Shown here one piece after another: positions 1 through 31,463 of a DNA stretch of 64,000 nt. The notes under the pieces are model-generated. The model was given only the letters and a program-made list of their open reading frames with translations, searched no databases and was not told the origin of the DNA. The DNA is from Scylla paramamosain (Eukaryota > Arthropoda > Malacostraca > Decapoda > Portunidae): the NCBI RefSeq assembly GCF_035594125.1, contig NC_087151.1, positions 23,667,831 to 23,731,830 on the forward strand, written 5' to 3'. Both the position numbers and the translations under genes were made by a program. How positions within the stretch are numbered: the first letter of the stretch is position 1; each line of letters opens with the position of its first letter.

Positions 1-703
1 TTTCAAAGTACTTTGCTTGCATATTGGTATTTTTATACGTAAAAAGCTAAAAAAAAAAAAAACACTCAAAATGCACGTTTTTTTGTAAATTATACTGTTT
101 ATCCATGAAATGGTTTTTGAATGCGTTTCATCGTTTTCGTACGTAAGTTCCTCAAATACACTGAAAAGAGACGTTTTTATTAATATTGTTTAGTTTTCCC
201 ACATAGGGTTCTTTCCATGCTTATTATCATTTTGGTGCCTACCACGCTCATAAACATTCAGAAGACACGTTTCTGAAAATCTCCTTATCTTTCCCCACAT
301 GCTTTGCATGTATTTCGGCTTTTTGATACCTAACAATGTGAGATACACTCAAAATACTCGGTTTTGGTAATGCTGTTCTGTTTCTCAATATAGAGTGCTA
401 TTCATGCTTTTTAGCGTTTTCTTACCTAAGAAGATAAAAAACACTCATAATATGCGGATCTTGCATTTTGTCGTTTTTGTACGCAAAAATACATTAACAA
501 TCACATTATTTGTTTTTTAGTAATATTATTGTTTCTTGAGAAAGGGTGTTTTGCATGCGTTTTAGCGTTTTGGTACGCAAGTAGCTCAAAAAACATTGAA
601 AAGAGATTTCTTTGGTAATGTTGTTTTGTTTTCTCATATAGAGTGATTTTCATGCGTTTTGGTGCCTAACACGTTAATAAACACATTTCTCGTTTTTTTT
701 TTT

Positions 704-800
704 TCACCAAAACGCTAAAATGCATGGAAATCACTGTATATGGGAATACCAAACACCATTACAAAACACGTATATATTGAGTTTTTCAGCTCCTCCTTAT
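704..800 (-). repeat. Inverted satellite fragment inside block Ia
   Basis: From about 704 the sequence reads ACCAAAACGCTAAAATGCAT and TATATGGGAATACC, the reverse complement of a D-type monomer. The flanks are in forward orientation. The right boundary is blurred by an A+T-rich stretch leading to the telomere-like tract at 871. Confidence 0.75.
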
Positions 801-870
801 TATTTATAAAATAAAGGTAACATAAAAATATTTTATAAAATAAAAAAAATAAATAAAAAAAACACTCAAA

Positions 871-955
871 CCTAACTTAACCTAATCTAACCTAAACTAA
901 CCTATCCTAACCTAACCTAACCTAACCTAAACCTAGCCTAATCTAACCTAACCTA
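871..955 (-). repeat. Degenerate interstitial telomeric repeat (CCTAA/TTAGG)n
   Basis: The plus strand reads repeated CCTAA with variants such as CCTAATCTAA and CCTAAAC. Five perfect CCTAA units run 906-930. The minus strand therefore reads TTAGG, the telomere motif of most arthropods. The tract replaces part of a satellite monomer: left of it the sequence ends AAAACACTCAAA, and right of it the satellite resumes at GTTGTTCTGTTTC, so about 19 bases of the expected monomer are missing. Confidence 0.85.
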
Positions 956-28086: not shown

Positions 28087-28127
28087 TAAAATCATAATAC
28101 AAGTTTCTCGTAATATTTTTTTTCGTT
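28081..28127 (+). repeat. Right arm of the inverted repeat next to (TA)n
   Basis: Exact reverse complement of 27,181-27,217 over 37 bases. This arm continues into normal forward satellite (TTTCTCGTAATAT), so it is the likely source and the left arm the inverted copy. Confidence 0.88.
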
Positions 28128-28393
28128 TCCCCCCTATAAGGTGCTTTGTATATACTTTTGCGTTTTGGTATCTAACAATGTAAAATGCGATCAAAACAAA
28201 CGTTTTGGTAATTTTCTGTTTCTCAATATAAAGTGCTATTTACACGTTTTAGCCTTTTGGTACTTAAGAAGCTCAAGAACATTAATAATAAACATTTCTT
28301 TTAATATCCTTTAATTTCCGAAATAAATTATTTTTCATGCAATTTAGCATTTTTGTATGTAACAAGCTGAGAACTGAAAATATACGTTTTTTG

Positions 28394-30628
28394 GAGCCAC
28401 AAATGTCCCCAGGGCGGACTGCTCTTCTGATAATTACCCTATGTGTCTTGACACCCCCCTCAACTTTTTCTTCATTAACTTCTGCAACATTCGCGGTCTA
28501 AGATCTAATTTTCAATCAGTAGAACACCACCTCTCCTCTTCTAAACCTCATCTTCTTTTCCTCACTGAAAATCAGGTATCTGAGGTAAGTGACAGTAGGA
28601 CTTTTTCTGTCCCCTCCTACTTTTTCTATCCTCATTTTCAATTCAAAGCTGGAGGTTGTGTTTATGTGCGAAACGACATAACCTTCTCTCGTGCCCACGC
28701 TCTTAAATCTTCTGAGTTTTCCACCATCTGGCTACGACTTCAGAGTCACTCTCAAACTAAATTCAGCTGTGCTGTATAAATCTCACCTAACTCCTCTAAC
28801 TACAAGAAATTCTTTGACTACTTAACTTCCAAAGTGAAGCATATTCTGACTCTCTTCCCTTTTGCAGAGATCTCCATTCTTGGAGACATCAATGTTCACC
28901 ACCAGCTTTGGCTTTCCTCTCCCTTCACTGACCATCCTGGTGAACTAGCCTTCAATTTGCTATCCTCCACGACCGAGAGCATTGGTGCAACACCCTACTC
29001 GTATTCCTGACCGTCTTGGAGATACGCCTAACATTCTTGACCTTTTCCTTACCTCTAATCCTTCTCCATATGCTGTCACCCTTTCTTCTCCGTTGGGCTC
29101 CTCCGATCACAATCTCATATCTGTATCTTTTCCTATCGCTCCAATCTCTCCTCACGATCCCCCTAAGCGAAGGTTCCTCTGGCGTTTTGCCTCTGCTAGT
29201 TGGGGAACCTGAGGAGGTATTTTGCTGACTTTCCTTGGAATTACTACTGCTTCCGTGTCAGAGACCCATCTTTGTGTGCCGAGCGCATAACAGAGGTGAT
29301 AGTCCCTGTCATAAAGGCATACTTTCCTCACTCTTTTTCTCGATCTAAACTTTCCAAACTTTGGTTTAACACAGCTTGTTCTCGTGCTATACATGATAGA
29401 TAGGTGGCCCACAAAAGGTACTTAAGCTTTCCATCACCAGAATCTCATGCACTTTATATTTCTGCCCGGAACCATGCCAAGTCTGTTCTCCAACTACCCA
29501 AAAATACTCCTTCATTAACAGAAAGTGTCAAAATCTTTCAAAATCTAACTCCCTTCGAGACTTCTGCCATTTAGCCCAAAATATCTCCAATAACTTTGCT
29601 TCTTCTTCTTTCCCTCCTTTATTTCAACCGGATGGCACCACTGCTATCACATCTATCTCTAAAGCTGAACTCTTCGCTCAAACCTTTGCTAAAAACTATA
29701 CCTTGGACGATTCATGGCTAGTTCCTCCCTCTCCTCCATCCTCTGACTACTTCATGCTTCACATTGAAATTCTTCGCAATAATGTTTTTCATGCTGGCCT
29801 AAACCCTTAGAAGGCCTATGGACCTGATGGGGTCCCTCCTATTGTTCTCCGAAACTGTGCCTCCGTGCTTGCACCTTGCCTAGTCAAACTCTATCAGCTC
29901 TGTCTGTCAACATCTACCTTTCCTTCTTGCTGGAAATTTGTCTACATTCAGCTTGTTCTTAAAAAGGGTGACCGTTCTAATCTTTCAAACTGCCGTCCTA
30001 TTGTTTTAATTCCCTGCCTATCTAAAGTTTTTGAATAAGAAGATTCTTAAACAACTTTCTATCTGATCGCCGGTATGGGTTCAGTCAAGGCCGCTCTACT
30101 GATGATCTGGCTTTCTTTACTGAGTCTTGATCATCCTCTTTTAGAGATTTTGGTGAAACTCTTGCTATTGCCTTGGATACATGAAAAGCTTTTGATAGAA
30201 TTTGGCACAAAGCTTTTATTTCCAAACTATACTTATACGGCTTCTATCCTTCTCTCTGTAACTTCATCTCAAGTTTCCTTTCTGACCGTTCTATTGCTGC
30301 TGTGGTAGTCGGTGACTGTTCTTCTCCTAAATCTATTAACAGTGGTGTTCCTCAGGGTTCTGTCCTATCACCCATTCTCTCCTTATAATTCATCAATGAC
30401 CTTCTAAACCAAACTTCTTGTCCTATCCTCTCCTACGCTGATGATACCACCCTGCACTTTTCCACGTCTTTTCATAGATGTCCAACACTTCAGGACGTAA
30501 ACGTTTCACTTAGGGAAGCCACAGAACGCCTGGCTACTGATCTTTTTTTTTAATTTCTGATTCGGGCAGAACAAACTTGGTATTGTTCAATGCCTCAAAA
30601 ACTATATTCCTCCAATCAACTCAACACA
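28394..30628 (+). mobile_element. LINE-2: both-end-truncated LINE copy, plus strand
   Basis: Homology starts near 28,394, just before AAATGTCCCC of the N-terminal coding region, so the 5' UTR and start codon are missing. It ends near 30,628 within the RT thumb region, after CAACTCAACACAC. Satellite follows at once and there is no 3' UTR or poly(A). Internal stops and indels are frequent (for example a stop after SWGT near 29,212 and a T-run insertion at 30,543-30,552). A missing 3' end is atypical of target-primed insertion and suggests later deletion or recombination. Confidence 0.88.
28441..28779 (+). pseudogene. LINE-2 endonuclease N-terminal fragment
   Basis: These 112 codons cover CNIRGLRSNF, LLFLTENQ (Thr-Glu-Asn where other copies have Thr-Glu-Thr) and CVYVRND. 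The frame stops at TAA at 28,777-28,779, where LINE-1 continues with YLSPN. It begins inside the conserved protein, so its ATG is not the native start. Further fragments follow: QHPTRIPDRLG and SSDHNLISVS at 28,982-29,212, an RT segment with GPDGVPPIVLRNC near 29,820, and YADDT near 30,435 in broken frames. Confidence 0.82.
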
Positions 30629-31463
30629 CATTTTTTGGTAATGTTATTCTGTTTCTCCACAATGGATGTTTAGTATGTATTTTAGCGATCTGATATATAA
30701 GAAGCTCAAAACCACTCAAAAGGCACGCTTTTCGTAATGTGCTTTTGTATTCCAATATAGAGTGCTTTCCATGCATTATAGCATTTTGATGCCTAACGAG
30801 CTCATAAAACACTCTAAAGAAACGTTTCTTGTAATGTCATTTCATTTACCCATACAGAGTGCTTTAAATGTATTTTGTCCCTTTGGTACCTGACACTGTG
30901 AAAAAAAGAATCATTCAAAATAAGCGTTTTTGATAATGTAGTTTTGTCTCACCATATATGGTACTATTAACACATTTTAGAGTTTTGGTAGTTAAATAGC
31001 TCAAAAACACACGTTTCTCGTAATGCCCTTTTGTTTTTCCATAAGGAGTGTTTTGCATCCATTTTGTCGTTTTGATACAAAACAACGTAAAGAATAAGTA
31101 AATAAATAAAAAAAGATATATTTGTCAATGCTGTTCTTTTCTAGTAAATAGAAAGTGCTATTCACGCGTTTTACCGTTTTGGTACCTAAGAAATTCAGAA
31201 ACACTTGTAATACATGTTTCTTGTAATATCATATCGTTTCCCATACAGTGTATTTTTTTATGCATTTTACCGTTTTTGTTGTAGGTAAGAATCTCAAAAA
31301 GACGTTTCTGGTAATGTTATTCTGTTTCGCAATAATTTATTATTTTTTTTTCTTAGCATTCGATTTAGCGTTTCAGTACGCAAAAAGCTCACAAACACTG
31401 AAAAGACACGTTTTTGGCAGTATTGTTTTGTATTCCAATATAAAATAGATTCCATGCTTTTTT
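30628..31463 (+). repeat. Satellite block Ic: forward five-monomer HOR, end of array
   Basis: About 8.5 forward monomers follow LINE-2 (for example TCCATGCATTATAGCATTTTG near 30,768, GGTACCTGACACTGTG near 30,886). The array ends abruptly at TCCATGCTTTTTTAATAA, where an (AAT)n run begins. This is the last forward satellite before the island. Confidence 0.85.

What the first reader, a model, noticed from the sequence alone, without database searches (positions are those of the whole stretch)
1..31463. A 96-bp satellite organised as a five-monomer (~480 bp) higher-order repeat
Five distinguishable monomer types recur in fixed order (example 14,416-14,891). My consensuses for all five are 96 bases and align without gaps, yet monomers differ strongly from one another. 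HOR structure is best known from primate alpha satellite and is seldom described in crustaceans. The array is old: HOR copies have drifted far, unlike young homogeneous arrays.
Basis: partly seen in the sequence, partly recalled or inferred. Interest (0 to 1): 0.75.

Follow-up and report, generated by a model that had tools for sequence, protein, structure and literature searches.

The report
Decayed five-part satellite, re-amplified in blocks
A 96-base tandem repeat really is built in repeating sets of five (and, in one stretch, eleven) kinds of unit; the sets have decayed far from a common ancestor, and pieces of the decayed array have since been copied again on a much larger scale.

Summary
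The whole window, not only 1-31463, is a 96-bp satellite (461 monomers). Labels learned without order fall into a five-step cycle in 284 of 344 neighbour steps; shuffles reach at most 98. Five types fitted separately in 1-31462 (+) and 52695-62977 (-) agree at 97-99%. Between them, 38418-52588 is a second, 11-monomer unit (held-out likelihood peaks at 11), found in tandem on another contig. Same-type monomers are only ~72% alike at every distance: homogenisation stopped and copies decayed independently. The best match to the reconstructed 480-bp unit among 40 scored is 89%, so no homogeneous five-monomer array was found. Yet two pieces of this decayed array recur over C1 20.5-24.3 Mb in both orientations, 65 of 66 scored C1 places at 93-100% (the window's own included). 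Known places cluster within contigs, on 34 contigs. Best reading: a dead higher-order-repeat layer, probably (peri)centromeric, now copied as multi-kilobase macro-units. Location and function are inferred. New variant of a known kind.

The parts
7..31462 (+). Five-monomer HOR domain L (269 monomers incl. small inversions), interrupted by two LINE copies and (TA)n tracts
   Evidence: 227 of 249 steps in order, labels fitted to the same data; 96% of 269 monomers favour HOR5
14419..14882 (+).
38418..51276 (-). Eleven-monomer HOR domain M (about 1,056 bp unit); types M5-M6-M7 resemble M8-M9-M10 (internal trimer duplication)
   Evidence: 98 of 109 steps in order for the whole M domain, labels fitted to the same data; 5% of 118 favour HOR5; tandem copies on C38
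51270..52588 (+). Inverted segment of the eleven-monomer domain, 12 monomers
52695..62977 (-). Five-monomer HOR domain R, same five types as L in opposite orientation (74 monomers)
   Evidence: (63 of 69 steps; consensus 97-99% to L)
703..774 (-). Single inverted monomer near the telomere-like tract
869..955 (+). Degenerate (AACCT)n, telomere-like interstitial tract (TTAGG type, name recalled)
16255..16619 (-). Four-monomer inversion inside domain L
27402..27472 (-). Single inverted monomer next to (TA)n 27210-27384
17411..20715 (-). LINE copy A (endonuclease and reverse transcriptase pieces)
28397..30622 (+). LINE copy B, partial
34950..38232 (+). LINE copy C, beside a cluster of simple repeats (31463-33935)
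46595..49270 (-). LINE copy D, inside domain M; lies within a 96% direct duplication
57761..60913 (+). LINE copy E, inside domain R

Best explanation
A 96-bp satellite was amplified into a pentameric higher-order repeat (480 bp), with an 11-monomer relative (1,056 bp) in one domain. It was once homogenised well enough that one five-type consensus still fits both flanks of the window and 11 sampled loci on other contigs (shown). Homogenisation at the HOR scale then stopped: copies decayed independently to about 83% of their ancestral type, biased towards A/T (pattern shown; unequal crossing-over as the maker of HORs, and its cessation, are inferred). LINEs inserted during the decay (relative order inferred from divergence). 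Later, pieces of the decayed array, with single alignments up to 8.8 kb and one direct offset near 46 kb, were duplicated repeatedly over C1 20.5-24.3 Mb in both orientations (shown for two query pieces and for 264 kb); near-identical large-scale copies also occur on C42 and C43 (shown; assembly duplication not excluded). Copying therefore now acts on multi-kilobase pieces rather than on 0.5-1 kb HORs. Known places are clustered within contigs, so the blocks are most likely (peri)centromeric heterochromatin like the dead alpha-satellite layers of primates (inferred; no centromere marker tested).
For: Pentamer: (284 of 344 vs shuffle maximum 98). Transfer tests: with types learned on R, neighbours predict a monomer's own type in 233 of 264 L monomers, and L to R 66 of 74, chance 20%; window-trained types keep order in 697 of 744 steps of HOR5-like flank sequence (the flanks hold many 90%+ copies of window sequence, and 25 monomers of unclear class were left out) and 227 of 250 on 11 other contigs. 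11-mer: held-out -55.26 per monomer at K=11 vs -57.04 at 10 and -57.26 at 12; 245 of 295 flank steps, against 144 of 295 with five types; near-full-length tandem matches on C38 at 69-85%, five of them 78-85%. Decay: same-type identity 0.726 below 700 bp, 0.710 at 20-32 kb, 0.723 between L and R; G and C changed 28-30%, A and T 10-11%; other-contig loci 0.797-0.835 to the consensus; best scored genome match 89%. Macro-copying. Clustering within contigs.
Against: Domain R's held-out likelihood is slightly better at K=10, 12, 13 and 15 (-55.59, -55.66, -55.50, -55.42) than at 5 (-55.93) (K=14 not tried), so a longer unit in R is not excluded. BIC favoured one class. That the 11-mer arose from the 5-mer by monomer fusion is only suggestive: column-shuffle p 0.036-0.076 for 6 of 11 types (M0, M1, M2, M3, M4, M8), 0.22-0.79 for the other 5, not corrected for testing 11. 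Genome searches scored only 40, 40, 40 and 34 of 14789, 12447, 861 and 19232 candidates, so a live array elsewhere is made unlikely, not excluded; unassembled sequence is unseen. One of 26 C1 places is only 89%, and one of eight fetched C1 loci (L004) is only 0.79-0.80 to its like-oriented fellows. Identical copies on C42 and C43 could be assembly duplication. (Peri)centromeric position has no direct evidence: the C1 pattern listing stops at 20.97 Mb, and beyond 24.3 Mb only one 2-kb control was read.
Confidence: 0.8

Rival explanations
1. The five-fold order is a clustering artefact on a plain monomeric satellite with no HOR.
For: BIC favours one class; no clear 480-base peak in raw autocorrelation; within-type identity only ~0.70-0.72.
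Against: Order-blind labels follow the cycle in 284 of 344 steps vs shuffle maximum 98; held-out peak at 5 in L; independent fits agree at 97-99%; 227 of 250 on other contigs.
Confidence: 0.01
2. The block is a live centromere: functional centromeric chromatin sits on this decayed HOR and is kept going by multi-kilobase macro-copying instead of HOR-scale homogenisation.
For: On the 24 contigs with two or more known places the spans are 0 to 7.1 Mb, and 14 contigs are far more clustered than random; known C1 places lie at 17.2-24.3 of 42.2 Mb; macro-copies are recent; in 264 kb no tandem array of more than two copies of a unit of 8 bp or longer reached score 300 (eight rows of 1.8-2.0 copies).
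Against: No centromere protein, methylation or FISH data; dead human layers show the same decay and are said not to function as centromeres (PMC4496801, passages); only 264 kb of a multi-megabase block was read.
Confidence: 0.25
3. The repeats are an ordinary regional tandem repeat of chromosome arms with no centromere relation.
For: Mean places range from 0.21 to 0.94 of contig length on the six contigs listed.
Against: Known places within contigs are far more clustered than random (mean span 0.071 of contig length vs 0.426, minimum of 100000 simulations 0.200; 14 contigs, places not all independent, some lengths lower bounds); two 2-kb C1 controls at 10.0 and 30.0 Mb have no monomers, though the first is largely a LINE copy; the C1 pattern listing starts at 17.18 Mb.
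Confidence: 0.15

Closest known systems
Dead alpha-satellite layers and 'pseudocentromeres' of human pericentromeres (PMC4496801, passages read)
   Same: Divergent former centromeric satellite with inversions and mobile-element insertions; later amplification of pieces of dead material; a pentameric family (SF3) exists there too.
   Different: 96-bp monomer, not ~170 bp; no homogeneous core was found here; the re-copied pieces reach many kb and are often inverted; probably an arthropod, not a primate.
Macro-dyad symmetries of Tribolium (peri)centromeric satellites (PMC13081366, passages read)
   Same: Multi-kilobase inverted subarrays of tandem repeats; in the window both HOR-domain changes coincide with an orientation change.
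   Different: There, major and minor satellites; here two HORs of one monomer family. That paper says such symmetries were documented only in Tribolium. Conservation of inversion sites was not tested here.
Crayfish PlSAT75-664 HOR (PMC7859515, passages read)
   Same: HOR reported in a decapod crustacean.
   Different: Composite of a 411-bp monomer plus four ~70-bp repeats, not an n-mer of distinct monomers; sequence similarity was not tested.

Membership tests
Higher-order repeat satellite | Distinct monomer types in fixed cyclic order | tested here: met
Higher-order repeat satellite | Copies of the unit more alike than monomers within it | tested here: met
   same type 0.720 vs different type 0.644 in L; 0.732 vs 0.618 in M; 0.728 vs 0.653 in R
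Live, homogeneous HOR array (human core ~98% identical, PMC4496801) | Near-identical unit copies | tested here: not met
   0.72 within type at all distances in the window; best genome match to the consensus 89% among 40 of 861 candidates scored
Dead (peri)centromeric satellite layer | Divergence, inversions and mobile-element insertions | tested here: met
Dead (peri)centromeric satellite layer | Flanks a live centromere core | not tested
   only 264 kb around the window was read; no centromere marker is available with these tools
Alpha satellite | ~170-bp monomer | tested here: not met
   96 bp
Tribolium-type macro-dyad | Multi-kilobase inverted subarrays in one array | tested here: met
   (HOR5+ HOR11+ then HOR11- HOR5- around C1:23,618,7xx); 325570 inverted vs 174501 direct aligned bases (each pair counted from both sides, LINEs included)
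Tribolium-type macro-dyad | Conserved inversion sites across arrays | not tested
   four window junctions were printed but not compared

The most novel reading that the evidence does not exclude
A genome whose chromosome-wide satellite is a fossil HOR: HOR-scale homogenisation has ceased on all chromosomes that carry it, and each block is now renewed only by duplication of multi-kilobase, often inverted, pieces (copies 16.3 kb apart on C43, a 46-kb offset on C1), with the centromere still resting on it.
Probability: 0.25. Interest if true: 0.75.

Novelty: new variant of a known kind. Interest (0 to 1): 0.55.

Why it matters
n-mer HORs with recoverable monomer types are best documented in primates (recalled); HORs in beetles, other mammals and fish are mentioned in PMC7859515 (passage). 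A pentamer and an 11-mer of one monomer family, both decayed to about the same divergence, in what is probably a decapod crustacean, give an independent case of HOR birth, freezing and reuse. The fixed order survives about 17% decay, so the ancestral array and its later re-copying can be dated against each other within one genome. It also makes testable whether centromeres can persist on a satellite no longer homogenised at the HOR scale.

Tried and rejected
First-pass lag analysis by monomer index showed lag 5 (0.669 vs 0.6485 for all pairs) but no clean comb, because monomers are missed; replaced by labels and cyclic models. My first idea that the array is simply frozen was wrong: one search showed more recent large-scale copies. 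The idea that the 11-mer is four contracted pentamers with chimeric monomers looked strong against a null that ignored divergence (8 of 11 junctions in order when monomer ends were typed, 7 of 11 with whole-monomer calls) but weakened against column shuffles; kept as a lead only. CpG hypermutation: not seen (C in CpG to T 0.168, other C to T 0.157); methylation was not measured. RNA families at gathering score and tRNAs: none. Viral contigs: 0 exact matches to the 20-base pattern.

Papers: nine searches. 'higher-order repeat' + satellite + Brachyura gave 0 papers; this library lacks most subscription journals, so that is no proof of absence. Passages only were read of PMC13130569, PMC13081366, PMC7859515, PMC12692304, PMC4496801, PMC9859433, PMC10454600; other papers were seen only in search listings. 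PMC5737470 (Tribolium HORs) is not held and was not read.
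Full report
What was checked. An iterated profile of the 96-bp repeat finds 461 non-overlapping monomers (275 +, 186 -; E < 0.01) covering 39,624 of 64,000 bases, from position 7 to 62,977. The array is + up to 31,462 and - from 38,418, with inversions at 703-774, 16255-16619, 27402-27472 and 51270-52588. So the feature spans the whole window, not 1-31463.

Is the five-fold order real? A mixture model that ignores order, run on the 427 of 461 monomers with a matched span of at least 60 columns, gives five nearly equal classes. Read along the sequence they cycle: 284 of 344 neighbour steps, against a mean of 82.6 and a maximum of 98 in 1000 label shuffles. By domain: L 177 of 197, R 53 of 57, M 47 of 82, and 6 of 7 in the inverted segment. 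BIC alone would choose one class; the held-out likelihood of cyclic models is the better test and peaks at 5 in L (K 1-13 and 15 tried). In R, 5 is a local peak but 10, 12, 13 and 15 score slightly higher. Five types fitted separately to L and R agree at 97-99% in the same cyclic order. Types learned on one domain predict the other: neighbours alone foretell a monomer's own type in 233 of 264 (R to L) and 66 of 74 (L to R).

A second HOR. In 38418-52588 the held-out likelihood peaks sharply at 11, 98 of 109 steps follow the 11-cycle (labels fitted to the same data), and a leave-one-out likelihood separates the domains: 96% of 269 L, 97% of 74 R and 5% of 118 M monomers favour the pentamer. Split-domain prediction gave 27 of 32 and 75 of 86 (labels partly circular). 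In the 100 kb on either side of the window the 11-types keep order in 245 of 295 steps, the five types in 697 of 744, with 25 monomers of unclear class left out (class chosen with the same models). The 11-mer consensus built from the window finds near-full-length tandem copies on another contig, C38, at 69-85% (five at 78-85%); the other listed places are on C1, and the listing was cut (34 of 19,232 candidates scored). Types M5-M6-M7 and M8-M9-M10 are 0.86, 0.86 and 0.93 alike, against a mean of 0.766 for neighbouring types: an internal trimer duplication. Both changes of HOR coincide with a change of orientation; the first lies somewhere in 31,463-38,417, which is filled by simple repeats and LINE sequence.

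Decay. Pairs of the same type are 0.720 (L), 0.732 (M) and 0.728 (R) alike, different types 0.644, 0.618 and 0.653. Within L the same-type value hardly depends on distance (0.726 below 700 bp, 0.710 at 20-32 kb), and L-R pairs give 0.723. This is the star-like pattern of copies that were once homogeneous and then mutated independently. Monomers are 0.83-0.84 identical to their own type's consensus (M is flattered by few monomers per type). G and C have changed in 28-30% of cells, A and T in 10-11%; CpG is not hypermutable. A few local duplications (for example lag 7 at 43.7-44.4 kb, 97-100%) are recent.

The genome. The window is C1:23667831-23731830 of a 1.21-Gb genome in 234 contigs; C1 is 42.18 Mb. 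For a 1-kb piece of the 11-mer domain 40 of 12,447 were scored: all 40 on C1 at 20.48-24.21 Mb, 93-100%. Both strands occur; the window's own copy is counted in each. Off-register matches beside them are mostly 65-77%. Eight fetched C1 loci of 3.5 kb form two like-oriented sets that are 0.95-0.97 alike, except L004 at 0.79-0.80, perhaps because it holds a breakpoint. In the 264 kb around the window, 84% of bases have another copy of at least 1 kb and 90% identity within the same 264 kb (window part 90%); inverted aligned bases exceed direct ones (325,570 vs 174,501; each pair counted from both sides, LINE copies included). The longest single match is 8.8 kb; one direct offset is near 46 kb. 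On C43 three 2-kb stretches 16.3 kb apart are 99.95-100% identical while the self-match inside them is 64%; on C42 an inverted pair 842 kb apart is 100% identical over 2 kb (assembly duplication not excluded).

Distribution. A 20-base pattern occurs 2,590 + 2,572 times, its backward control 0; only the first places are listed, all on C1, from 17,183,099 to 20,970,426, so the rest of C1 is not covered. A 35-base piece of the L1 consensus occurs 37 times in all, far too few for a homogeneous array of that sequence. The 480-base consensus matches at 82-89% at best (40 of 861 candidates scored). Together these calls place the family on 34 contigs; on the 24 with two or more known places the spans are 0 to 7.1 Mb (places typed). 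For 14 contigs the mean span is 0.071 of contig length against 0.426 for random places (some places are not independent, and some lengths are lower bounds from the apparent size order). Eleven loci on 11 other contigs, chosen because one search found matches there, hold 24-29 monomer hits per 2.6 kb; two 2-kb C1 controls hold none, but the control at 10.0 Mb turned out to be largely a LINE copy. Window-trained types keep order at the 11 loci in 227 of 250 steps, with identity 0.797-0.835 to the consensus (best type chosen per monomer). If the pattern density of the 264 kb (26) and its 58% satellite content held everywhere, some 30 Mb of the genome would be this satellite; this is an extrapolation.

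LINEs. Five copies of one family interrupt the array, 82-92% alike over the longer pieces; the frames scanned have endonuclease or reverse-transcriptase domains. Copy D lies inside a 96% direct duplication, so it came before that copying. If rates are equal, the order is: HOR freeze, LINE insertion, macro-copying. The reverse transcriptase's named hits among the 120 listed of 3,905 include Armadillidium vulgare, Eriocheir sinensis, a record named for the parasite Enterospora canceri and a beetle, Acanthoscelides obtectus; that the Enterospora record is really crab DNA is my guess.

How it probably works. HORs form when several adjacent monomers are amplified and homogenised together, longer units probably by unequal crossing-over (stated in PMC7859515, passages). 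Here that process stopped, and duplication of larger pieces took over. Human dead alpha-satellite layers show the same decay, insertions and inversions, and amplification of pieces of dead material is described there (PMC4496801, passages). The likeness is in behaviour, not in sequence. Whether the blocks carry the centromere was not testable.

Noticed in passing
window 869-955: Degenerate (AACCT)n telomere-like tract inside the satellite, near a single inverted monomer (703-774).
   Followed up: partly
window 27210-27384, 27793-28088, 45368-45538: Long (TA)n tracts inside monomers; two of the three (27793, 45368) interrupt the monomer at about columns 35-51, near the CATATA stretch of the consensus, as if expanded from it.
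   Followed up: no
window 31463-33935: Cluster of long simple repeats ((TAA)n, (AGA)n, (TC)n, (TTA)n, (TTG)n, (TA)n) where the array changes orientation and HOR type.
   Followed up: no
window 33161-34939: Pieces 72-76% alike to the window's LINE copies in opposite orientation to copy C: a second, more diverged LINE fragment.
   Followed up: no
C1:23606581-23641737: Dyad: HOR5+ HOR11+ then HOR11- HOR5-, centred near 23,618,7xx.
   Followed up: partly
window LINE stretches (17400-20700, 35400-38400, 57900-60900): LINE stretches have CpG observed/expected 0.38-0.45 while satellite stretches have 0.93-1.11; cause not examined.
   Followed up: no
C43:2655001-2689588 and C42:12.709/13.551 Mb: Near-identical large-scale copies (16.3 kb apart; 842 kb apart, inverted) of decayed array.
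   Followed up: partly
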